Of a stretch of DNA of 64,000 bases, positions 13,147 through 23,880 are shown piece after piece. Source of the DNA: Rhodothermales bacterium (GTDB taxonomy: Bacteria; Bacteroidota; Rhodothermia; Rhodothermales; UBA10348). The notes under the pieces were generated by a model. It was not told the origin of the DNA, searched no databases, and worked only from the letters and a program-made list of their open reading frames with translations. How positions within the stretch are numbered: the stretch's first letter is position 1; every line of letters begins with the position of its first letter. The translations under genes and the position numbers were made by a program. The DNA lies in the NCBI GenBank assembly GCA_040221055.1, contig JAVJVN010000004.1, forward strand, positions 186,001 through 250,000. The letters run 5' to 3'.

Positions 13147-13752
13147 CTATATCCGCGCCTTCGGCAGCCCAACCCCGTGGAACATGGCGTAGAAACGGAG
13201 GCCGGAGGTCACCAGCACGGCCGTCCAGATCTGGATGGCGGTCCCGAACCCGAGCGCCTCGACGCCGAGCAGGGCGGCGGCGCCGATGAGCGCGGCGGTC
13301 GCGTAGAAATCGTGCTTCACGACGGCCGGAATTTCGCGTACCAGCACGTCGCGAACGGCGCCGCCGCCCGTAGCCGTAAGCGCTGCAATGATCATGACGC
13401 CGATGGGGCCGAGTCCGAACGCAAGCGCCTTCAACGCGCCGATGGCAGCAAACACGCCCAGCCCGATGGCGTCGGCAAACATCACGCGGTTCCACTGGGT
13501 TGCCACACGGGACGAGGCCACGAACGCGACCGCGCCGCCCAGCAGGCACACGCCCAGGTACAGTTCACTCTCCAGCGCGGCAACGGGAGTCGCCCCCAGC
13601 AGCATGTCACGGATCATGCCGCCGCCCACGCCGGTGGCCACGGCCAGCACCATAACGCCGAGCAGGTCCAGATCGTGCCGCGTGGCCCGGAATCCACCGG
13701 CCACCGCGAAAACAAACGTTCCAACGATATCCAGGACGTCGAGCGTGGTCAC
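13147..13752 (-). CDS. TRIC-family (UPF0126) membrane protein
   Basis: A 201-residue very hydrophobic protein made of two similar halves, each a UPF0126 repeat with glycine-rich helices (VGGGMIRDMLLG in the first, TGGGAVRDVLVRE in the second) and about seven membrane segments. Bacterial members of the TRIC family form trimeric cation channels. The frame is open further upstream, but similarity begins at VTTLDVLDIVGTFVF. I therefore use the GTG at 13752, whose overlap with the preceding stop (GTGA) mirrors the ATGA junctions elsewhere in the window. Confidence 0.85.
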   Translation of the reverse strand: MTTLDVLDIVGTFVFAVAGGFRATRHDLDLLGVMVLAVATGVGGGMIRDMLLGATPVAALESELYLGVCLLGGAVAFVASSRVATQWNRVMFADAIGLGVFAAIGALKALAFGLGPIGVMIIAALTATGGGAVRDVLVREIPAVVKHDFYATAALIGAAALLGVEALGFGTAIQIWTAVLVTSGLRFYAMFHGVGLPKARI

Positions 13753-14231
13753 TTCAGGATATCCCGGATGATTTTCAGATGATGGCGGTTGTGCACGCCC
13801 ATGAACCAGAGCGCCCGGTTGCGCTGGAACGAACCGAAAACGTGATGGTCGTACCATGCTTCCTCGGGCAGCGCTACGGCTGCCTCTACGCATGCCTCCG
13901 CCACGTCGAGCGCGTTCAGGATGCGCTCCCTCGGAGGTGACGGTTCCGGAACGACGCCAGTGGGGGCCTTCCCTTTGCCACGGGGAATGGTCCCGGTCAC
14001 GGAGACAAACACGCGCGGGACGGACCATTTCACGGGTGGAGCCGGCAAAACGGACGGCTCCCGATCCGGGTCCACAGAGTCGGCCAGCTTCGTCGCCATG
14101 CCGGCCATGGCGAGTGCGCAGTGCTCCACATGCATGCCGACGGACCACGCCGAAACGTCGGCATTCAGCGCCTCCGCATCGCCAACGTGGTGCCTGAGTG
14201 TGTTCAGCGTGGTCTCCAGAAGGGTGTGCAT
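13749..14231 (-). CDS. DinB/DUF1569-like protein
   Basis: A 160-residue soluble protein resembling the DinB-like four-helix family. Candidate metal-binding histidines lie in the second helix (MHVEHCALAMAGM) and in the C-terminal NRHHLKIIRDIL motif, which is typical of DUF1569. Members of the wider family are metal-dependent thiol transferases or have unknown roles. It follows the trans-3-hydroxyproline dehydratase gene by four bases and overlaps the TRIC gene, so it is probably co-transcribed with both. Function unknown. Confidence 0.65.
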   Translation of the reverse strand: MHTLLETTLNTLRHHVGDAEALNADVSAWSVGMHVEHCALAMAGMATKLADSVDPDREPSVLPAPPVKWSVPRVFVSVTGTIPRGKGKAPTGVVPEPSPPRERILNALDVAEACVEAAVALPEEAWYDHHVFGSFQRNRALWFMGVHNRHHLKIIRDILK

Positions 14232-14235
14232 GGGT

Positions 14236-15276
14236 TTACCGGATGATGAAACCGTCCCGGAGCGGATCGTCCGGGTCCAGCAGGAACGTGGACCGACCGG
14301 TGATGAAGGCCCGCCCGCTGACTTCCGGCACAACCGCATCGTGCGGACCCACACGCGTGGTCGCCACCACCTGCACCGTGAACGTCGTCCCCAGGATGCT
14401 CTCGATGACAATCGGCGTACCCGGCATGAGTTCACCCCGCGCCGACAGCAGGGCTGCCCTCCCGCTCACGCCGGTGCCGGTGGGACTCCGGTCCACCTCG
14501 CCGTCGGCAAAAATGCACACGTTCCGGGAATGATGCGTCGCCTGCTCCGCCGGTCCAGTGAAAATCGTGCCATAGAAGAAGGCCAGGTCCTCGGCTTCCG
14601 GATGCGTCAGCGGATGCGCCTCCATGACTGCCTTTTTTATGCGGGTGCCCGCATCGATCAGGCTCCGGGCATGCCGCGTGTTGAGCGTGAGGCCGAGCGA
14701 GGGCGCATCCACATAGGCATAGAACGCCCCGCCGAATCCAACGTCGTACCGGACCCGGCCAAGCACCGGTACATCCACCTCTGCATCCAGGGCGTGGGCC
14801 CAGGACGGCACGTTCTGGAAGCGGACCTCGGTCACGCGACCGTCCTCGTGGCGCGCATGGGCCGTCACGAGCCCGGCCGGTGTATCTATCCGGACGATTT
14901 CTTCGCCTGAACCCTTGCCCGACCGTCCCGCAGAACCTGAACCGTCACCGGTGAAGGGGATTATCCCCTCCTCCAGCACGACCCTCGTGACGCCCAGGAT
15001 GCCGTGTCCGCACATGGTCGAGTACCCCTCGTTGTGCATGAACAGCACGGCGAAGTCGGCCGACGGCGTCACCGGAGGCATGATCAGACAGCCGTACATG
15101 TCGGCGTGGCCGCGCGGCTCGAACATGAGCGCCGTCCGGTACCGGTCCAGGTGCTCGCGTGCATACCGGCGCCGCTCCAGCACGGTGGCCCCCTCCGGCT
15201 GCGGAAATCCGCCCGTAATCACCCGGAGCGGCTCCCCCTCCGTGTGCGCATCCACAACCGTAATCTGTTCGATCAT
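14236..15276 (-). CDS. Trans-3-hydroxy-L-proline dehydratase (proline racemase family)
   Basis: A 346-residue proline-racemase fold protein. The first catalytic cysteine is present at Cys89 (TMCGHG). The second catalytic position carries Thr (about residue 266, RSPTGTGVSG) instead of Cys. In this family the Cys/Thr pair marks trans-3-hydroxy-L-proline dehydratases, which make delta-1-pyrroline-2-carboxylate, whereas Cys/Cys marks racemases and epimerases. Substrate assignment therefore rests on the residue pair. It sits 2-6 kb from genes for trans-4-hydroxyproline breakdown, and both substrates come from collagen. The ATG at 15276 is 65 bp from an inverted-repeat element. Confidence 0.85.
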   Translation of the reverse strand: MIEQITVVDAHTEGEPLRVITGGFPQPEGATVLERRRYAREHLDRYRTALMFEPRGHADMYGCLIMPPVTPSADFAVLFMHNEGYSTMCGHGILGVTRVVLEEGIIPFTGDGSGSAGRSGKGSGEEIVRIDTPAGLVTAHARHEDGRVTEVRFQNVPSWAHALDAEVDVPVLGRVRYDVGFGGAFYAYVDAPSLGLTLNTRHARSLIDAGTRIKKAVMEAHPLTHPEAEDLAFFYGTIFTGPAEQATHHSRNVCIFADGEVDRSPTGTGVSGRAALLSARGELMPGTPIVIESILGTTFTVQVVATTRVGPHDAVVPEVSGRAFITGRSTFLLDPDDPLRDGFIIR

Positions 15277-15629
15277 GGCGGAATGTACCCAATTTCCGGA
15301 TTGTTCGTACGTTCCATCGGCATCGGCGTCCCCCGCCACCAAGAAGGCTGTTGAAGAAGTAGAGGACCCCTCGTTCGGAGCGCCATGACATCAGATTCCA
15401 GGCGTTCCGACGTTTGCGTAGCCGTAGCTACTCATAGGAGGAACAACACAGAAGATGATGTCATGCCGCCCGAACCCTATGGGAGCGAGGGGGTTACGGG
15501 CGGATACTTTGTCATGGCTCCTCCGCGATACTATGGCATCGCGTCGTCGCCCTTCCTCGTCTGCGCCTCGTAAGACCCTCGCTCGAGGGGCCCTCTACTT
15601 CTTCAGCAGCCTTCTAAACCACCACTGCC
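15277..15629. other. 353-bp intergenic stretch mostly filled by an inverted-repeat element
   Basis: This is the only stretch over 300 bp without a credible gene. It lies between the divergent dehydratase and amidohydrolase genes. Positions 15342-15615 form a terminal-inverted-repeat element, leaving 65 bp upstream of the dehydratase and 14 bp before the amidohydrolase ATG. Short open frames inside it show no protein-like features. Confidence 0.6.
15342..15615. mobile_element. MITE-like element with 32-bp terminal inverted repeats
   Basis: The left end (15342-15373, starting AGAAGGCTGTTGAAGAAG) and the right end (15584-15615) are inverted copies matching at 30 of 32 bases. The 210-bp interior has its own dyads: CATGACATCA (15384-15393) with TGATGTCATG (15456-15465), and a hairpin pairing 15466-15477 with 15491-15503. 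There is no transposase and no clear target-site duplication. It could be a non-autonomous transposable element, or a structured regulatory element controlling the flanking divergent genes. Confidence 0.6.
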
Positions 15630-16901
15630 ATGTTGTTATACCTGCTGGCCGCACTGACGGCCCTGACTGCGTTCGTCAATGTAAATGTCCTGCCCATGGA
15701 CAGCGAACGCGTCCTCATGAACCATACCGTCCTCGTGGACGGCGACCGGATAGTCCGGGTCGGACCCGCCGCCGACGTTGAGGTCCCCGACGACGCCCAT
15801 GTCATTGATGCCACAGGATTGTGGCTCATGCCGGGGCTGGCCGAAATGCATGGGCACATTCCACCCCCGTCCCAGCCCCGGGAAGAACTCGAGTCCGTGA
15901 TGTACCTGTACCTGGCCGGCGGCATCACAACGGTTCGCGGCATGCTCGGCTGGCCCGGCCAACTGGAGCTCCGGGACGCCGCCAACAGCGGCCAACTCCT
16001 GTCGCCCACGCTGTATCTGGCGGGGCCCAGTTTCAATGGCCAGACGGTCACCTCTGTCGAAGCCGCACGGGAGCGGGTGCGTACGCAGGTCGCCGAGGGG
16101 TGGGATCTGCTCAAGGTGCATCCCGGCATGTCCCGTGAGGTGTACGATGCGATGGCCGAGGAGGCCAACCGCCTCGGCATCCGGTTCGGCGGACACGTCC
16201 CCCAGGCCGTGGGCCTGGAGCATGCCATCGACATGGGGCAGGAAACGTTCGATCATATTGACGGATACGTCGAGCTCCTGGGAACGATGGTCCCGCCCGA
16301 CGCCGCAGCCCTGGCCCGCATCGTGGAGAAGAGCCGCGATGCCGGTGTCTGGGTGGTCCCGACCAGTGTCCTGTGGGAGACGCTGCTCGGCGTGAACTCC
16401 CTGGAATTCCTGACGTCGTTCCCCGAACTGAAATACGTGAGCGCACAGACCCGGGCCTCCTGGGAGAACATCCACCGGAACCGGCTGGCATCGGCCATGC
16501 CCGAAGGACCCGCCATCGCGGAGAACCGGAAGATCATCCTGAAGGCCCTGTCCGACGGCGGTGTGGGTATCCTGATGGGTACCGATGCGCCCCAGCAATT
16601 CAGTGTGCCCGGGTTCTCGCTCCACAGGGAGCTGGAGTACATGGTGAATGCAGGCATGTCGCCGTACGAGGTTCTCGCGAGCGGCACGCGCAACGTAGGT
16701 CGCTACTTTGAGAACGAGGATGTATTCGGGCAGGTGGCCGAAGGGCACCGGGCCGACCTGGTGCTTCTGGCGGCCAATCCGCTGGACGACATCTCGGCGG
16801 TCGCGACCCAGCAGGGCGTGATGATCCGTGGCCGCTGGCTGCCGCAGGCCGACATCCAGGCGCGACTGGCCGAAATCGAGGCCTACTACGCCGGGCAGTA
16901 G
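15630..16901 (+). CDS. Amidohydrolase (imidazolonepropionase/prolidase-like), probably exported
   Basis: This 423-residue metal-dependent hydrolase of the amidohydrolase superfamily has a short hydrophobic N-terminus without charged residues (LLYLLAALTALTA), then a small beta domain and a TIM barrel. Metal-ligand motifs are visible: MHGH near residue 72, Lys in LLKVHPG, His in FGGHVPQ, His in DHIDG, and Asp in MGTDAPQ. Relatives in this branch include Xaa-Pro dipeptidases misannotated as generic amidohydrolases. Given the neighbouring hydroxyproline genes, a role in releasing proline or hydroxyproline from peptides is an attractive inference, not a demonstrated one. The ATG lies 14 bp from the inverted-repeat element. 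Confidence 0.78.
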   Translation: MLLYLLAALTALTAFVNVNVLPMDSERVLMNHTVLVDGDRIVRVGPAADVEVPDDAHVIDATGLWLMPGLAEMHGHIPPPSQPREELESVMYLYLAGGITTVRGMLGWPGQLELRDAANSGQLLSPTLYLAGPSFNGQTVTSVEAARERVRTQVAEGWDLLKVHPGMSREVYDAMAEEANRLGIRFGGHVPQAVGLEHAIDMGQETFDHIDGYVELLGTMVPPDAAALARIVEKSRDAGVWVVPTSVLWETLLGVNSLEFLTSFPELKYVSAQTRASWENIHRNRLASAMPEGPAIAENRKIILKALSDGGVGILMGTDAPQQFSVPGFSLHRELEYMVNAGMSPYEVLASGTRNVGRYFENEDVFGQVAEGHRADLVLLAANPLDDISAVATQQGVMIRGRWLPQADIQARLAEIEAYYAGQ

Positions 16902-16980
16902 CGGGGAGGGGTTGGACGAGAAGGGCGGGCGCGGATAAGAAGAGAGAGCGTAGGACCGACGGGGGTTGGAAATGCTCGGG

Positions 16981-17022
16981 GCCTGTAATATATTAGTTGT
17001 ATACAGCTAATATATTACAGGC
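16981..17022. promoter_or_regulatory. 42-bp palindrome, candidate GntR operator
   Basis: GCCTGTAATATATTAG at 16981-16996 and its exact complement at 17007-17022 flank a 10-nt centre that itself contains TGTATACA. The whole 42 bp is symmetric except for one base pair next to the centre. It ends eight bases before the start codon at 17031. TGTATACA-type cores are typical targets of FCD-type GntR regulators, and such a regulator is encoded in this operon. It could also form a strong cruciform or RNA hairpin. Confidence 0.7.
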
Positions 17023-17030
17023 GTAACCCC

Positions 17031-17939
17031 ATGTCAGACAACTGGAAAGGCGTATTTCCCGCCATCACGACGGCCTTCAAGGAAGACCTCTCGCTCGACT
17101 ACAACGGCATCCAGCGCATGGTGGAGGCCCAGATTGACGGGGGCGTCCACGGCATTGTGGTGACCGGTACGCTCGGCGAGGCCAGCACACTCACCTTTGC
17201 CGAAAAACAGGAAGTGCTCCGTGTGGCCGTTGAAGCCGCCGACGGACGCGTTCCCGTACTCATGGGCATCGCCGAGAATGCGACATCGACCGCTTGCCAG
17301 GCCGTGGAAGACGGCACCGTGAACGGCGCATCGGGCTTCATGCTGTTGCCCGCCATGCTCTACGCGGCGGACCGGCGCGAGACCATTGCGCATTTCCGCA
17401 CGGTGGCCAAGGCCAGCGGCAAGCCCATCATGATCTACAACAACCCGGTGCTCTACAAGGTGGACACCACGCCGGAAATGTTCGCCGAACTGGCCGACGA
17501 AGAGATGTTCGTGGCCATCAAGGAATCCTCGGACGACGTTCGCCGCGTGACCGACATCATCAACGCGACCGGCGACCGTTACCAGATCTTCACCGGGGTG
17601 GACAACATTGCCCTGGAGAGCCTGGCGGTGGGTGCCGTGGGCTGGGTTGCCGGGCTTGTGTGCGCCTTCCCGCGCGAGACGGTAGCCATCTACAATCTGG
17701 TCCAGGCCGGCCGGATGGCCGAGGCCCTGGCCATTTACCGCTGGTTCAAGCCGCTCCTGGATCTGGACGTGCACGCCAAGCTGGTCCAGAACATCAAGCT
17801 GGCCGAGGCCATGACGGGACTGGGCACCGAGCCGGTACGGCCGCCCCGCCTGCCGTTGGTGGGCGCCGAACGCGAACACGTGACCGCCGTCATCCGGCAT
17901 GCGCTGGACAACCGGCCCGACGTGTCGGACTACGTATGA
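17031..17939 (+). CDS. DapA-superfamily lyase, probable 1-pyrroline-4-hydroxy-2-carboxylate deaminase
   Basis: This 302-residue class I aldolase-fold enzyme has the Schiff-base lysine at Lys164 (VAIKESS) and the conserved tyrosine at Tyr136 (MIYNNP). The TGTLGEAST segment corresponds to the substrate carboxylate site. Dihydrodipicolinate synthase relatives carry out several reactions. Here the operon also encodes a 4-hydroxyproline epimerase and a D-amino-acid oxidase, so the expected role is the third step of trans-4-hydroxy-L-proline breakdown: deamination to alpha-ketoglutarate semialdehyde. The gene follows the 42-bp palindrome, lacks an obvious Shine-Dalgarno site, and overlaps the GntR gene by ATGA. 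Confidence 0.8.
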   Translation: MSDNWKGVFPAITTAFKEDLSLDYNGIQRMVEAQIDGGVHGIVVTGTLGEASTLTFAEKQEVLRVAVEAADGRVPVLMGIAENATSTACQAVEDGTVNGASGFMLLPAMLYAADRRETIAHFRTVAKASGKPIMIYNNPVLYKVDTTPEMFAELADEEMFVAIKESSDDVRRVTDIINATGDRYQIFTGVDNIALESLAVGAVGWVAGLVCAFPRETVAIYNLVQAGRMAEALAIYRWFKPLLDLDVHAKLVQNIKLAEAMTGLGTEPVRPPRLPLVGAEREHVTAVIRHALDNRPDVSDYV

Positions 17940-18565
17940 CGCTCGCGGACCAGGCGTACGACCGCATTGAGCGGATGATCGTGACGCTCGAGTTGCCACC
18001 GGGGGCCCCGTTCTCGGAGGCCTCGCTGGCGGCCACGCTCGACCTCGGTCGGACACCCATCCGGGAGGCCCTGCAGCGCCTGGTGGCGGACCGGCTCGTC
18101 CTCGCCATTCCCAAGCGCGGCATGCAGGTAACGGACATTGACGTGCCCGAATACCTGGCCCTGCTCGAAACGCGGGCGGTGCTGGACCGGCTGACGGTCG
18201 GCCGCGCCGCAACGCGCGTAACGCCCGACATTGCCGCCGAGCTCCGCAGGCTTGCCGCCGACATCCAGATGGCGGCCACGAAGGACGATACGGACACCTT
18301 CATGCAGCTGGACCGCCAGGCGGACCTCGTGCTGGCCGAGGCCGCGGCGAATCCGTTCGGCGCCGACGCATCGCGGGCACTTCATGCCCACGCACGGCGT
18401 TTCTGGTACCAGTACCGGCATGCAGGCGACCTCACCGCATCTGCCGTGCACCACGCCGCCATCCTGCTGGCCGTCGCCGAAGGTGACAAGCGCGAGGCGG
18501 AATCCGAGAGCGACCGGTTCATGGCGTATCTCGAACACTTTACCCGGGAGGCCATCGGTCTCTGA
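17936..18565 (+). CDS. GntR-family (FCD domain) transcriptional regulator
   Basis: A 209-residue regulator with an N-terminal GntR winged helix (residues about 5-70, including FSEASLAATLDLGRTPIREA) and a C-terminal all-helical FCD ligand-binding domain. FCD metal-site candidates are Asp near 122 and His residues in HARRFW and VHHAAIL. It is the second gene of the hydroxyproline operon, coupled by a 4-bp overlap, and probably binds the 42-bp palindrome at 16981-17022. Hydroxyproline or a pathway intermediate is the expected effector. Confidence 0.88.
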   Translation: MTLADQAYDRIERMIVTLELPPGAPFSEASLAATLDLGRTPIREALQRLVADRLVLAIPKRGMQVTDIDVPEYLALLETRAVLDRLTVGRAATRVTPDIAAELRRLAADIQMAATKDDTDTFMQLDRQADLVLAEAAANPFGADASRALHAHARRFWYQYRHAGDLTASAVHHAAILLAVAEGDKREAESESDRFMAYLEHFTREAIGL

Positions 18566-18566
18566 T

Positions 18567-19568
18567 ATGGCCATTCATCGTTTCACGTGCATAGATGCAC
18601 ACACCTGCGGCAACCCGGTCCGGGTCATCACGACCGGCGGTCCGGTACTGGAAGGCGCATCCATGGCGGCGCGGCGTGAGCATTTCATGGCGGAGTTCGA
18701 CTGGATCCGCCAGGGGCTCATGTTCGAGCCCCGCGGACACGACATGATGTCGGGAAGCATCCTCTACGAGCCGACCCGGGAGGACTGCGACGTGGGCATC
18801 CTGTTCATTGAAACCAGCGGATGCCTGCCCATGTGCGGACACGGTACCATCGGCACGGTGACGGTCATCATCCAGGAGGACCTGGTCCGGCCGGCCGAAC
18901 CGGGGGTGCTTCGCCTGGAAACGCCCGCCGGACGGGTGGATGCCTACTACATCCTGGAGGGGGACCGTGTGGCCAGCGTCCGGCTCGTGAACATTCCCTC
19001 GTTCCTCTACAAGGCAGGGCTCACGGTGGAGTGTCCGGACCTGGGTGAACTGACCGTGGACGTGGCGTACGGCGGGAATTTCTACGCCATCGTGGACAGC
19101 CAACCGAATTTCCGCGACATGGCGGACTACACGGCCGGGGATTTCATCCGGTGGAGCCCGGTCGTGCGGCATCGATTGAATGCCGCCCATACGTTCGTGC
19201 ACCCGCTGGATGAGCGGATTCACGGAATGACCCACATGCTTTGGACCGGTGCCCCCACCGTTCGCGACGCGACCGCCCGGAACGCGGTGTTCTACGGCGA
19301 CAAGGCCATCGACCGGAGCCCGTGCGGCACGGGTACGTCCAGCCGGATGGCCCAATGGGCCGCTCAGGGGAAACTTGGTGAGGGCGACCTGTTCGTGCAC
19401 GAAAGCATCATCGGCAGTCTCTTCACGGGACGCGTGGAACGTTTGACCCGCGTCGGGGATTTTGATGCCATCGTGCCCAGTATTGCCGGCTGGGCCCGCG
19501 TCACCGGATACAACCAGATCCTGATTGACGACGACGACCCGTACGCCCACGGCTTCCAGGTGATTTGA
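18567..19568 (+). CDS. 4-hydroxyproline 2-epimerase (proline racemase family)
   Basis: A 333-residue proline-racemase fold enzyme with both catalytic cysteines, Cys90 (PMCGHG) and Cys253 (RSPCGTGTS). This separates it from the Cys/Thr dehydratase at 14236-15276. It is expected to convert trans-4-hydroxy-L-proline to cis-4-hydroxy-D-proline, the substrate of the oxidase encoded next. The ATG at 18567 follows the GntR stop at once, and the next gene begins three bases after the stop here. Proline racemase is the alternative, but the neighbours favour hydroxyproline. Confidence 0.87.
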   Translation: MAIHRFTCIDAHTCGNPVRVITTGGPVLEGASMAARREHFMAEFDWIRQGLMFEPRGHDMMSGSILYEPTREDCDVGILFIETSGCLPMCGHGTIGTVTVIIQEDLVRPAEPGVLRLETPAGRVDAYYILEGDRVASVRLVNIPSFLYKAGLTVECPDLGELTVDVAYGGNFYAIVDSQPNFRDMADYTAGDFIRWSPVVRHRLNAAHTFVHPLDERIHGMTHMLWTGAPTVRDATARNAVFYGDKAIDRSPCGTGTSSRMAQWAAQGKLGEGDLFVHESIIGSLFTGRVERLTRVGDFDAIVPSIAGWARVTGYNQILIDDDDPYAHGFQVI

Positions 19569-19571
19569 CCC

Positions 19572-20828
19572 ATGAGCATGAATTCGGATATCGTAGTTGT
19601 CGGCGGCGGGGCGGTCGGGCTGTGCACGGCGTGGTACCTGGCGGAGGCCGGGGCGCGGGTGACGGTGGTCGACCGGATGAGCGTGGATGAGAAGGCGTCG
19701 GTGGGCAACGCCGGCATGCTCGTCCCGAGCCACGTCGTGCCGCTGTCGGCACCGGGCGTGGTGATGAAGGGGCTCAAGATGATGATGAATGCATCGAGCC
19801 CGTTCCAGATTGCGCCGCGCGCAGACCGCTCTTTTTTGCGGTGGCTCTGGCTCTTCAACCGGCACGCCAACCGGCGGCACATGGCCTACGGGGTCCCGCT
19901 GCTGCGTGACCTGTCCCTGAAGAGTGTGGAACTGTTCCAGGAACTCTGTGCGCTGGAAGGACTTTTGGGCGCCGGTTTTGCGCAGACGGGGCTGCTCAAT
20001 CTGTACCGGGGCGACGCCGCCATGCGGGACGACCTGGCGCTGGCCGACGTGGCCGAGCGTGCGGGGTTGGCCATTGACCGGTTGGATGAGGATGCGGTGC
20101 GCGCCCTGGAACCCGATATCCGGGTGCCCATCCGGGGCGGGGTGTTCTACCGGCAGGATGCGTCCATCCATCCGGAAAAGTTCGTGGTGGCACTCGCGCA
20201 GATGCTGGCCGCCCGGGGCGTGGAGTTCGTGGATGCGACAGCGGGCGGCATTGACCGCAGCGTCGGGGTCGTGCTGGATGGCGCGGCGGCCGACGGCCGC
20301 CGCGCCATAGGGGGCGATCGGATTGTTGTTGCCGCCGGGGCCTGGACGCCGGCCCTCGTCAAATCGCTGGGTCTTCGCTTGCCGGTCGAGCCGGCGCGTG
20401 GGTACAGCGTGACCGTCCGCGAGCACGATACGTCCATCCGCATTCCGTGCGTGTTCACCGACGAGAAGATTACGATCACGCCCATGGCGGGTGAACTCCG
20501 GTTCACGGGCACGCTCACGCTGACCGGGTTCAATCGGGAGGTCCAATCGCGCCGAGCCGAGCCCATCCGCCGTCTGGCCCAGACCTATGCGGGCCCCTCC
20601 ATGGCCATCGAGAAGCCCGAAATGTGGAGCGGCTTCCGGCCCGCATCTCCCGACGGTCTGCCCATGATCGGCCTCGTTCCCGGCACCCGCAATATCTACG
20701 TGGCCACGGGCCACGGCATGCTCGGCGTCACCCAGGCGCCCGTCACCGGCCGCATGCTCTCGGCCATGATGGGCGGCCCTGCGCTCGACCTCGACGCCGA
20801 GCCGTACAACCCCGGACGTTTTGGGTAA
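19572..20828 (+). CDS. FAD-dependent D-amino acid dehydrogenase, probable cis-4-hydroxy-D-proline oxidase
   Basis: This 418-residue DAO-fold flavoprotein has a dinucleotide-binding motif at residues 6-14 (DIVVVGGGAVGL) and a C-terminal FAD-contact segment (SPDGLPMIG, then GHGMLGVTQAP). The length and plan match DadA-type enzymes. In the operon it would oxidise cis-4-hydroxy-D-proline to 1-pyrroline-4-hydroxy-2-carboxylate, which feeds the DapA-like deaminase. It overlaps the following fusion gene by eight bases if that gene starts at the TTG at 20821. Confidence 0.85.
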   Translation: MSMNSDIVVVGGGAVGLCTAWYLAEAGARVTVVDRMSVDEKASVGNAGMLVPSHVVPLSAPGVVMKGLKMMMNASSPFQIAPRADRSFLRWLWLFNRHANRRHMAYGVPLLRDLSLKSVELFQELCALEGLLGAGFAQTGLLNLYRGDAAMRDDLALADVAERAGLAIDRLDEDAVRALEPDIRVPIRGGVFYRQDASIHPEKFVVALAQMLAARGVEFVDATAGGIDRSVGVVLDGAAADGRRAIGGDRIVVAAGAWTPALVKSLGLRLPVEPARGYSVTVREHDTSIRIPCVFTDEKITITPMAGELRFTGTLTLTGFNREVQSRRAEPIRRLAQTYAGPSMAIEKPEMWSGFRPASPDGLPMIGLVPGTRNIYVATGHGMLGVTQAPVTGRMLSAMMGGPALDLDAEPYNPGRFG

Positions 20829-23800
20829 GACGATCTCTAGACCGCAGATTTCGCCGGAGGAGGTGTTGCGCCTGGTTCGGGACGCGTACGCGATTGGGGG
20901 CGCCGGCTCCCTCACAGTTGAGCCGCTCCCGGGGGATCGGGATTCCAACTGGAAGGTGTTGGTGGATGGCCGGCCGGTCGGGGTGCTGAAGGTATTCTCT
21001 CCGCTGGCGTCGCGGGCATGGATTGAGCTGGAGGAACGGGTGTTGGGGGCCGCGGCCGCCCGTGGTTTGCCCGTGCCGCAGGTGGTGCCCGCGGCCGACC
21101 AGCGCACGGTCCTGGCGTGGGAAGGGACGTTCGCGCGCATGGTGACGTGGCTGGAAGGCCGCCCCCTCGGGGACACGAATCCAGTTCGACCTGCGCATGC
21201 CCGGGCGCTCGGTCGGGTGCTCGGCCGTCTTGGACGCGCGCTCCAACCCCTGGACACCGCCGGGACCCCCGACGACTTCGCGTGGGACATGCTGAACGCG
21301 GACCGGACCGTGCGCGAGCGGCTGGACGATCTCACGGCGCATCCCTTTCTGCCTGAAACGGGCATGGACCTGGTGCAGGACGTGCTCACGCACTTCGTAG
21401 CCCAGGTCAAACCCGTACTGGCTGGCCTCCCGCGGCAACTCATCCACAACGATGCAAATGACTGGAACGTCCTCGTCCAGGGCGACGCCATAACCGGACT
21501 GCTGGACTTCGGCGACGTCGTGGCCGCCCCCCGCGTGGTGGACGTGGCCGTAGCCGCGGCCTATGCCGCCATGGACCGGACAGACCCGGTGGCGTTCATC
21601 GGCGAGGTCGTGGCCGGGTATCACGCCGAATACCCGCTGGACGAACAGGAAGTGGCCCTCGTGGCCGATCTCGTGCGCATGCGCCTGGTGGTGAGCGTGG
21701 CCATGTCGGCGTGGCGTCGCCGCTCGGAGCCCAACGATCCCTACCTGACCATCAGCGAGAGGTCCGCCTGGACGCTGCTGCATCGGCTGGCGGCCCTCCA
21801 CCCCCGTTTCGTGCACTACCGACTGAGGGCGGCCTGCGGAATGGAGCCCGTGCCCGGCTCGCGGCGCATCGGAAAATGGCTCAAGGAGCGCGCGGGGACC
21901 TTTCCGGCCGTCATCCGGCCGGCGCTCTCCAAGTTGGGCGCCGACCAGAGCGCATCATCCCCTGTCCTTTTTGATTTTTCCGTCAGCAGCCTGGAGTTCG
22001 GGCCCGTCGACCTGACCGTTCCGGGCGCCGCAGAAGACGAAATCTGGCGTCGATGCGGCGACGCGGTAGGCATTGGCCGGTACGCCGAGGCCCGACTGGC
22101 CTACACCGGCGTGCAGTTCGCGACAGAAACAGGCGCCCGCCGCACCATCCACATCGGAATTGACCTGTTCCGGCCTGCGGGATGCGCGGTGCACGCCCCG
22201 CTGGAAGGCACGGTCCAGGCCGCGCGCATCCACGACGACCAGTTCGACTACGGCGGATGCGTCATTTTGGAGCACACCATCGAAGGGCTCCCCACATTCT
22301 GGACGCTGTACGGCCACCTGAGCCATGCTACCGTGCTTGCGCTCACGCCTGGACAGCAGATATCGCCGGGGGAAGCCTTCGCGGAGCTCGGCGCGTGGGA
22401 TGAGAATGGCGGCTGGGTGGCCCACCTGCATTTCGAGGTCATCACCGACCTCCTGGACATGGAGGGCACGTATCCCGGAGTGGCCTCCCCCGACGAGGCC
22501 GATGTCTGGAAGTCGTTGTCCATCAACCCCGCCGACCTGCTGGGACTCGGGCTGGAAGCTACCGCTCCTCCGCCGCCCCCGCTGGACGAATTGCTGGATC
22601 GTCGGCGCGCCGTGCTGGGACCGAACCTGAGCCTGGCCTACCGCCCACCATTGCACATTGCCCGCGGCATCATGCAATACCTGTACGACCCCGAGGGACG
22701 GGCGTACCTGGATGCGGTGAACAACGTGGCCCACGTCGGGCATCAGAATCTGGCGGTCACGCGGGCTGTTTCGCGGCAGGTGCGCACGCAGAACACGAAT
22801 ACCCGGTACCTCCATGAGACGGTGCTGGAATTCGCTGAGCGCCTGCTGGAGACGCTGCCGGACCACCTGGAGGTGGTCTATCTGGTCAATTCAGGCAGCG
22901 AGGCCAACGACCTGGCCCTGCGCGTGGCGCGGACGGCTACCCGCCGTGAGGATGTGCTGGTCCTGGAGGGCGCCTACCACGGGCATCTGGGGTCGCTGAT
23001 TTCCGTCAGCCCCTACAAGTACGACGGGCCGGGGGGCACCGGAAGGCCGTCCGGGACATGGACGGTTCCCATGCCCGATGCTTACCGGGGGGCGTTCCGC
23101 GGGCAGACCGAGGCGACGGGTTCCGCATATGCGGCGCTCGTGAAGGAGGCACTGGACAACGCCGAGGCCGCTGGGCGGCCCATTGGCGCGTTCCTGGCCG
23201 AGTCCGTTCCGGGATGCGGTGGGCAGATCGTACCCCCGCCGGGATACCTGCGTCAGGCTGCCGAGTACGTGCGGGCCGCCGGTGGCGTGGTCATCCTGGA
23301 CGAAGTGCAGGTGGGCATGGGTCGTCCGGGCGATGCGTTCTGGGGCTTCGAGTTGCAGGGCGCCCGCCCCGACATGGTGGTTATCGGAAAACCCGTCGGA
23401 AACGGCCATCCGCTCGGCGTCGTGGCCATGACGCGCCCGCTGGCCCATGCGTTCAACACCGGGATGGAGTACTTCAACACCTTCGGCGGCAATGCCGTCT
23501 CGGCCGCCGCAGGTCTGGCCGTGCTGGCCGAAATCCGTGATCGGGGCTTGCAGACGCACGCCAAGGATGTGGGCGCGCATCTCATGGACGGGCTGCGGGG
23601 ACTCCAGCGCCGCTACCCCCTCATCGGGGATGTGCGCGGCGTCGGCCTCTTCGTGGGCGTCGAACTGGTCCTGGACCGCGAAACGCTGGAACCGGCGGCC
23701 GCCGCCGCCCGGTACATCGCGAACCGCATGGCCGAAATGGGGGTGCTCCTGTCCACCGACGGACCGCTGAACAATGTCCTCAAGATCAAGCCGCCCATGG

Positions 23801-23880
23801 TGTTCACGCGTCAGAACGCGGACTTCCTGGTGCACGTGCTGGAGCGGGTGCTGAAGGAGGACGCCGTGCAGATTCGATAG
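20821..23880 (+). CDS. Trifunctional fusion: APH-type kinase, M23-like domain, class III PLP enzyme (hydroxylysine kinase / phospho-lyase candidate)
   Basis: A 1019-residue protein with three domains. Residues about 1-330 are an aminoglycoside-phosphotransferase-fold kinase with catalytic HNDANDWN near 207 and DFGD near 224. Residues about 420-570 resemble M23 peptidases (HIGIDL, GHLSHA, HLHFEV). Residues about 600-1019 are a class III PLP enzyme with AYHGHLG and the PLP lysine near 856 ([12 protein letters not shown]). The kinase resembles hydroxylysine kinase, and the PLP domain resembles the AGXT2L phospho-lyases acting on phosphohydroxylysine or phosphoethanolamine. Beside hydroxyproline genes, hydroxylysine is the best substrate guess; ethanolamine is the main alternative. 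TTG start, chosen because family similarity begins there. Confidence 0.8.

What the first reader, a model, noticed from the sequence alone, without database searches (positions are those of the whole stretch)
13749..23880. Island for breakdown of collagen-specific amino acids
One stretch encodes a Cys/Thr proline-racemase homologue (trans-3-hydroxyproline dehydratase), a Cys/Cys homologue (4-hydroxyproline epimerase), a D-amino acid oxidase, a DapA-type deaminase, a GntR regulator, and a kinase plus PLP-lyase fusion suited to hydroxylysine. Trans-3-hydroxyproline, trans-4-hydroxyproline and hydroxylysine together are hallmarks of collagen. Grouping all three routes is unusual. A secreted subtilase and its partner follow directly, consistent with feeding on animal protein. 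No transporter is visible in the island.
Basis: partly seen in the sequence, partly recalled or inferred. Interest (0 to 1): 0.8.

Follow-up and report, generated by a model that had tools for sequence, protein, structure and literature searches.

The report
Collagen-type amino-acid breakdown operon
A marine-type bacterium carries, side by side, the genes to break down the modified prolines of collagen and a three-part fused enzyme whose best-supported job is to break down collagen's other special amino acid, hydroxylysine; the pairing is conserved through its family and points to an untested bacterial hydroxylysine route.

Summary
Window 14236-23880 encodes a Cys/Thr trans-3-hydroxyproline dehydratase, an exported prolidase-like amidohydrolase (missed), a DapA-type deaminase, an FCD/GntR regulator, a Cys/Cys 4-hydroxyproline epimerase, a D-amino-acid oxidase and a 1019-aa fusion. 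The fusion has three domains, not two: APH kinase, M23 peptidase (missed) and PLP lyase. The last five genes overlap or abut and form one operon behind a 42-bp palindrome. Their order is kept in 14 of 16 sampled genomes of the family (Rhodothermales) despite ~50% protein divergence. In 74 fusion loci elsewhere (many phyla) no hydroxyproline epimerase is near, so the linkage is real and lineage-specific; the 3-hydroxyproline gene joins only in the window's genus. Hydroxylysine is the best substrate guess: the closest solved lyase is human ethanolamine-phosphate lyase (50%), but elsewhere the fusion sits beside a P6C/AASA dehydrogenase, basic-amino-acid transport and Lrp regulators. Against: the canonical AASA dehydrogenase is absent from every island genome; a different ALDH in a second locus replaces it in distribution. 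That locus also holds the Pyr2C reductase. The subtilase is not conserved here. Collagen as food source is plausible, not shown. The M23 domain, with its zinc site intact in 80/80 homologues, is unexplained.

The parts
14236..15276 (-). [quoted passage not shown]
   Evidence: Pfam Pro_racemase 380 bits; motifs MCGHG and DRSPTGTG; [quoted passage not shown] NCBIfam NF045511 363 bits is below its 540 cut-off. Beside the operon only in the window's genus
15630..16901 (+). Amidohydrolase of COG1228 type with a hydrophobic N-terminus; prolidase-like, substrate inferred
   Evidence: Pfam Amidohydro_1; best NCBIfam NF051886 Xaa-Pro dipeptidase, weak at 91 of 500 bits; solved relatives 2p9b 'Possible prolidase', 2qs8 'Xaa-Pro dipeptidase'; next to the operon in the window's genus only
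16981..17022 (.). 42-bp near-perfect palindrome 9 bp before the DapA start; probable operator of the GntR regulator
   Evidence: related YTGATATATCAR boxes lie upstream of DapA in six relatives and are almost absent from the rest of 1.09 Mb of loci; four copies in the genome
17031..17939 (+). [quoted passage not shown]
   Evidence: Pfam DHDPS 195 bits, below TIGR00674 DapA cut-off; YNNP motif and Lys164; conserved in 4-Hyp clusters of the order
17936..18565 (+). FCD-domain GntR regulator
   Evidence: Pfam GntR + FCD; start overlaps the DapA stop by 4 nt
18567..19568 (+). 4-hydroxyproline 2-epimerase (Cys/Cys)
   Evidence: NCBIfam NF010578 570 bits, cut-off 376; MCGHG and DRSPCGTG
19572..20828 (+). 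D-amino-acid oxidase/dehydrogenase, probable cis-4-hydroxy-D-proline oxidase
   Evidence: Pfam DAO 235 bits; DadA-type NCBIfam NF001933 246 bits, below cut-off; adjacent to 4HypE throughout the order
20821..23880 (+). Trifunctional fusion: APH-type kinase (~1-350), M23 metallopeptidase (~440-545), PLP class-III phospho-lyase (~590-1015); proposed hydroxylysine kinase / 5-phosphohydroxylysine phospho-lyase
   Evidence: Pfam domains; PRK06148 1138 bits, cut-off 1128; best solved lyase 6tor, then 5g4i; kinase, zinc and PLP-lysine residues conserved in 80 homologues

Best explanation
This is a catabolic operon for hydroxylated amino acids. 4-Hydroxyproline is epimerised to cis-4-hydroxy-D-proline (18567-19568), oxidised (19572-20828), deaminated to alpha-ketoglutarate semialdehyde (17031-17939) and oxidised to alpha-ketoglutarate by an aldehyde dehydrogenase outside the island. 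trans-3-Hydroxyproline is dehydrated (14236-15276) and reduced to proline by an ornithine-cyclodeaminase-type reductase at a second locus (contig C9). The fused protein phosphorylates a hydroxylated amino compound with its kinase domain and removes ammonia and phosphate with its PLP-lyase domain; the likeliest substrate is 5-hydroxylysine, giving 2-aminoadipate semialdehyde (AASA), then oxidised by the C9 aldehyde dehydrogenase. The FCD-GntR protein probably represses the operon at the palindrome before the first gene. Shown: gene content, active-site residues, operon structure, conservation of order, positions of the candidate missing enzymes. Inferred: every substrate, the regulation, and collagen or collagen-like protein as natural source.
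For: Enzyme families and catalytic residues. Overlapping or abutting genes. Order DapA-GntR-4HypE-DAAO-fusion kept in 14 of 16 family genomes of at least five genera, with differing flanks, and in a further Rhodothermales contig (L116). Same order without the fusion in other Rhodothermales 4-Hyp clusters (L192, L193, L195, L196), so the fusion was added to a standard hydroxyproline cluster. Context elsewhere favours a basic amino acid: NF050084 P6C/AASA dehydrogenase above cut-off ~1 kb from the fusion in two Latescibacterota; a lysine/arginine/ornithine-type binding-protein gene follows the fusion in four Rhizobiales loci and an Lrp/AsnC-type regulator adjoins it in eight. Proline-racemase-family enzymes occur in 40 of 47 class genomes with kinase-lyase genes against 11 of 99 without, including a Cys/Thr dehydratase next to a Pyr2C-type reductase in four of five loci examined from genomes where the fusion is unlinked. 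The C9 locus has a Pyr2C/Pip2C reductase (NF004793 323 of 322 bits) and an ALDH; that ALDH is in 20 of 27 family genomes and absent from genera g2/g3, whose members G022 and G032 carry NF050084 instead.
Against: No NF050084 AASA dehydrogenase in any island genome. The closest solved lyases are both phosphoethanolamine-type phospho-lyases. One Bacteroidota locus has an ExaC-type acetaldehyde dehydrogenase 3.4 kb from the fusion, which would fit ethanolamine. Outside this family the fusion is not linked to hydroxyproline genes. The co-occurrence count is confounded by descent: by family it is 6 of 9 against 2 of 11, p = 0.065. NF045511 cut-off not reached by the dehydratase. No growth or enzyme data.
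Confidence: 0.62

Rival explanations
1. The fusion is an ethanolamine kinase / ethanolamine-phosphate phospho-lyase; it shares an operon with hydroxyproline genes because both feed on debris of animal or algal cells (membrane lipid and matrix protein).
For: Best solved relatives are phosphoethanolamine-type lyases, human 6tor 448 bits and bacterial 5g4i 311 bits; an ExaC acetaldehyde dehydrogenase lies near the fusion in L147; NF050084 is absent from island genomes.
Against: Neighbours elsewhere are P6C/AASA dehydrogenase, LAO-type amino-acid transport and Lrp/AsnC regulators. Six family genomes carry a second, unfused lyase 40-44% identical to the fusion's lyase domain that could hold the ethanolamine role. 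Operon conservation is with an amino-acid pathway.
Confidence: 0.2
2. The fusion degrades hydroxylysine or a relative of it from a non-collagen source (bacterial hydroxylysine lipids, or hydroxylated or methylated lysine derivatives), and the 4-hydroxyproline comes from plant or algal wall glycoproteins.
For: Hydroxylysine lipids exist in Bacteroidota (PMC4484230); 4-Hyp is abundant in algal walls (own knowledge); most relatives are environmental metagenome assemblies.
Against: The window's genus adds a trans-3-hydroxyproline dehydratase, whose substrate is best known from collagen (own knowledge), and genomes of the order with an unlinked fusion also tend to carry it.
Confidence: 0.25
3. The adjacency is neutral: a hydroxyproline operon and an unrelated fusion gene became neighbours once in the family ancestor.
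For: The fusion occurs in many phyla without hydroxyproline neighbours.
Against: The order outlasted divergence to ~50% protein identity with different flanking genes; stop/start overlap with DAAO.
Confidence: 0.1

Closest known systems
4-hydroxyproline catabolic cluster (epimerase-DAAO-DHDPS-ALDH; eLife 2014, PMC4113996)
   Same: Epimerase, D-amino-acid oxidase and DHDPS-superfamily deaminase together; GntR-type regulator adjacent
   Different: Semialdehyde dehydrogenase is not in the operon here (it is in G079 and G118); the kinase-M23-lyase fusion is added as last gene
trans-3-hydroxyproline pathway (t3HypD + OCD-type Pyr2C reductase; PMC4113996)
   Same: Cys/Thr dehydratase present; OCD-type reductase in the genome, and adjacent to the dehydratase in four of five other Rhodothermales loci examined
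   Different: In the window genome the reductase is on another contig, beside an ALDH, a DAO-type oxidase and an aminotransferase
Animal hydroxylysine pathway HYKK + PHYKPL (Veiga-da-Cunha 2012, J Biol Chem 287:7246; paper not held; pathway named in PMC5200902)
   Same: APH-type kinase plus class-III PLP lyase, the same two-step chemistry proposed; from memory that paper used bacterial kinase-lyase fusions, including three-domain ones, as its clue
   Different: Fused into one chain with an M23 domain between; bacterial activity untested as far as I could find; no human HYKK or PHYKPL sequence was available for comparison
Human ethanolamine-phosphate phospho-lyase (PDB 6tor) and bacterial phospholyase A1RDF1 (5g4i)
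   Same: 50% and 41% identity to the lyase domain in the structural match
   Different: Stand-alone enzymes with a different proposed substrate
PRK06148 / PRK06149 three-domain proteins (NCBIfam)
   Same: Same architecture over full length, 1138 bits against cut-off 1128 for PRK06148
   Different: That family is unnamed ('hypothetical protein'); this is a context in which it joins an amino-acid pathway

Membership tests
4-hydroxyproline 2-epimerase | Cys/Cys catalytic pair and curated family score | tested here: met
   MCGHG, DRSPCGTG; NF010578 570 of 376 bits
4-hydroxyproline 2-epimerase | Linked D-Hyp oxidase and Pyr4H2C deaminase | tested here: met
   DAAO and DHDPS-family genes in the same operon and in relatives
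[quoted passage not shown]
   MCGHG, DRSPTGTG
[quoted passage not shown]
   363 against 540 bits, though the best of all PRS models; assignment rests on active site and relatives, not on the curated model
[quoted passage not shown]
   NF004793 323 of 322 bits at C9:2054-2995
Hydroxylysine kinase / phosphohydroxylysine lyase | Intact APH kinase residues and PLP lysine | tested here: met
   D211, N216, D229 and K857 in 80 of 80 sequences
Hydroxylysine kinase / phosphohydroxylysine lyase | Acts on 5-hydroxylysine | not testable with these tools
   Needs assay
Hydroxylysine kinase / phosphohydroxylysine lyase | Canonical AASA/P6C dehydrogenase in the genome | tested here: not met
   NF050084 absent from island genomes; another ALDH is the candidate substitute
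Ethanolamine-phosphate phospho-lyase | Specific for phosphoethanolamine | not testable with these tools
   50% identity to 6tor does not settle the substrate
M23 metallopeptidase | HxxxD, central His and HxH zinc/catalytic residues | tested here: met
   H444, D448, H499, H535, H537 in 80 of 80 sequences
DHDPS-type Pyr4H2C deaminase | DHDPS family with catalytic Lys and YNxP Tyr | tested here: met
   YNNP, Lys164; below the TIGR00674 DapA cut-off

The most novel reading that the evidence does not exclude
The fused protein is a three-step collagen-residue processor: its M23 domain cleaves hydroxylysine-containing (Gly-Hyl-type) peptides in the cytoplasm and hands free hydroxylysine to the kinase and then the lyase, making it the first known bacterial hydroxylysine-releasing and -degrading enzyme, found across many bacterial phyla and in Thorarchaeota.
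Probability: 0.12. Interest if true: 0.78.

Novelty: new variant of a known kind. Interest (0 to 1): 0.5.

Why it matters
In the open-access papers searched I found no bacterial gene with proven hydroxylysine breakdown (most subscription journals are not held). A conserved operon that ties a widespread, unnamed kinase-M23-lyase fusion to hydroxyproline breakdown gives that family a testable function and a physiological setting. It would also explain how bacteria use the two amino-acid classes left over when collagen is digested, and raises the question of why a metallopeptidase domain sits between the two enzymes.

Tried and rejected
Subtilase as part of the island: rejected, no conserved neighbour. 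DinB-like gene: no evidence. The Pst/PhoU genes between ALDH and OCD in relatives: a phosphate transporter, not a peptide importer. AASA dehydrogenase as a general partner of the fusion: rejected, widespread in class genomes without it. Saccharopine-family genes in the genome look like stand-alone lysine dehydrogenases on reading and do not settle the route. Substrate choice by sequence: not possible without a PHYKPL sequence, which did not appear among solved structures. The key 2012 hydroxylysine kinase paper is not held.
Full report
What is there. Window 14236-23880 (genome G000, contig C4, 3.3 Mb assembly; relatives are named Rhodothermales or Bacteroidota metagenome assemblies) holds: a Cys/Thr proline-racemase-superfamily enzyme (14236-15276, -), a COG1228-type amidohydrolase (15630-16901, +), and a tight five-gene unit on +: DHDPS-type deaminase (17031-17939), FCD/GntR regulator (17936-18565), Cys/Cys 4-hydroxyproline epimerase (18567-19568), DAO-family oxidase (19572-20828) and a 1019-aa fusion (20821-23880). 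The genes of the unit overlap or lie 1-3 nt apart. The fusion has an APH kinase domain, an M23 metallopeptidase domain and a PLP class-III lyase domain and passes the PRK06148 cut-off over its full length (1138 against 1128 bits).

Is it more than chance. The order DapA-GntR-4HypE-DAAO-fusion is kept in 14 of 16 family genomes sampled (one of them, G133, starts inside GntR; in the congeners G081 and G045 extra sequence separates DAAO and fusion; in G079 and G118 an ALDH lies between DapA and GntR), plus one further Rhodothermales contig (L116). The fusion and DAAO have diverged to about 50% identity, and flanking genes differ between genera. In other Rhodothermales the 4-Hyp cluster has the same core without the fusion (L192, L193, L195, L196). 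So fusion plus hydroxyproline cluster is a derived, conserved trait of this family. The dehydratase and amidohydrolase join it only in the window's genus; an upstream neighbour shared with other family members (cluster c14) marks the flank beyond which they were inserted.

Function of the hydroxyproline part. Active-site signatures and family scores support 4HypE and t3HypD; the enzyme set matches the known 4-Hyp and 3-Hyp pathways (PMC4113996). Candidates for the enzymes missing from the island are elsewhere: an OCD-type reductase scoring as Pyr2C/Pip2C reductase (323 against 322 bits) and an ALDH nearest to 2,5-dioxovalerate/alpha-KGSA dehydrogenase models (below their cut-offs) sit together on contig C9. 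That second locus, with a class I/II aminotransferase and usually a soxA-like oxidase, is conserved in the eight family genomes compared (annotation).

Function of the fusion. The lyase domain is closest to human ethanolamine-phosphate phospho-lyase (6tor) and then to bacterial A1RDF1 (5g4i). These enzymes and animal PHYKPL are close relatives (own knowledge; [quoted passage not shown] Sequence alone therefore cannot choose the substrate. Context leans one way: next to the fusion elsewhere are an NF050084 P6C/AASA dehydrogenase (two Latescibacterota, 780 against 730 bits), a lysine/arginine/ornithine-type binding-protein gene in four Rhizobiales loci (one member scored, 198 of 256 bits) and an Lrp/AsnC-type gene in eight (one member scored). 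AASA is the product expected from hydroxylysine. One locus has an acetaldehyde dehydrogenase 3.4 kb away instead. In the class, proline-racemase-family enzymes occur in 40 of 47 genomes with kinase-lyase genes and 11 of 99 without, but counted by family this is 6 of 9 against 2 of 11 (p = 0.065), so shared descent may explain part of it.

The gap. No island genome carries NF050084. The C9-type ALDH is present at 76-84% identity in 20 of 27 family genomes and is not found in genera g2 and g3, of which G022 and G032 have NF050084 and an unlinked fusion. G079 and G118 carry both an alpha-KGSADH-like gene in the island and the C9-type ALDH. The simplest reading is that the C9 ALDH took over AASA oxidation, but this is inference.

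Regulation. A 42-bp near-perfect palindrome lies at 16981-17022, 9 bp before the DapA start. Related boxes (YTGATATATCAR) occur within 131 bp upstream of DapA in six other genomes and hardly anywhere else in 1.09 Mb. In the whole genome the palindrome occurs four times, control zero; two of the other three copies lie between convergent genes and one before a cystathionine-gamma-lyase-like gene (gene identities read from the sequence), so the regulon is unclear.

The M23 domain. Its zinc and catalytic residues are invariant in 80 of 80 fusions from bacteria and Thorarchaeota. The AlphaFold model (mean pLDDT 78, ten sequences) folds the kinase well and the segment at the start of the lyase poorly. 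No role for an intracellular M23 domain between a kinase and a lyase is known to me. Release of hydroxylysine from glycine-rich peptides is the attractive guess and remains untested.

Verdict. A conserved operon for hydroxylated amino acids: hydroxyproline part secure, hydroxylysine part likely, collagen source plausible. New variant of a known kind.

Noticed in passing
window 16981-17022; G000 C12:80133, C11:116560, C18:22410: 42-bp palindrome present four times in the genome; related boxes conserved before DapA in relatives. Two copies lie between convergent genes, so it may be an operator, a repeat or both.
   Followed up: partly
window 20821-23880, residues ~440-545 of the protein: Fully conserved M23 metallopeptidase site inside a kinase-lyase fusion; role unknown.
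   Followed up: partly
L046-L050, L052, L053, L055, L059 (related family f7): In another Rhodothermales family the fusion sits beside a DapA-like gene, a galactokinase, an Xaa-Pro aminopeptidase and an FKBP prolyl isomerase (not all in every locus); collagen hydroxylysine is galactosylated, so the galactokinase may be meaningful.
   Followed up: no
L034, L035, L037, L039, L040: Na+/solute symporter directly after the fusion in relatives: candidate transporter that the window lacks.
   Followed up: partly
G000 C14:174119-174832 and C14:182648-183394: Two saccharopine-dehydrogenase-family genes resembling lysine dehydrogenases, whose product would converge on AASA.
   Followed up: partly
L070-L072: A third Rhodothermales family carries the kinase and lyase as separate genes without the M23 domain.
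   Followed up: no
L100, L159: The trifunctional fusion also occurs in Thorarchaeota assemblies.
   Followed up: no
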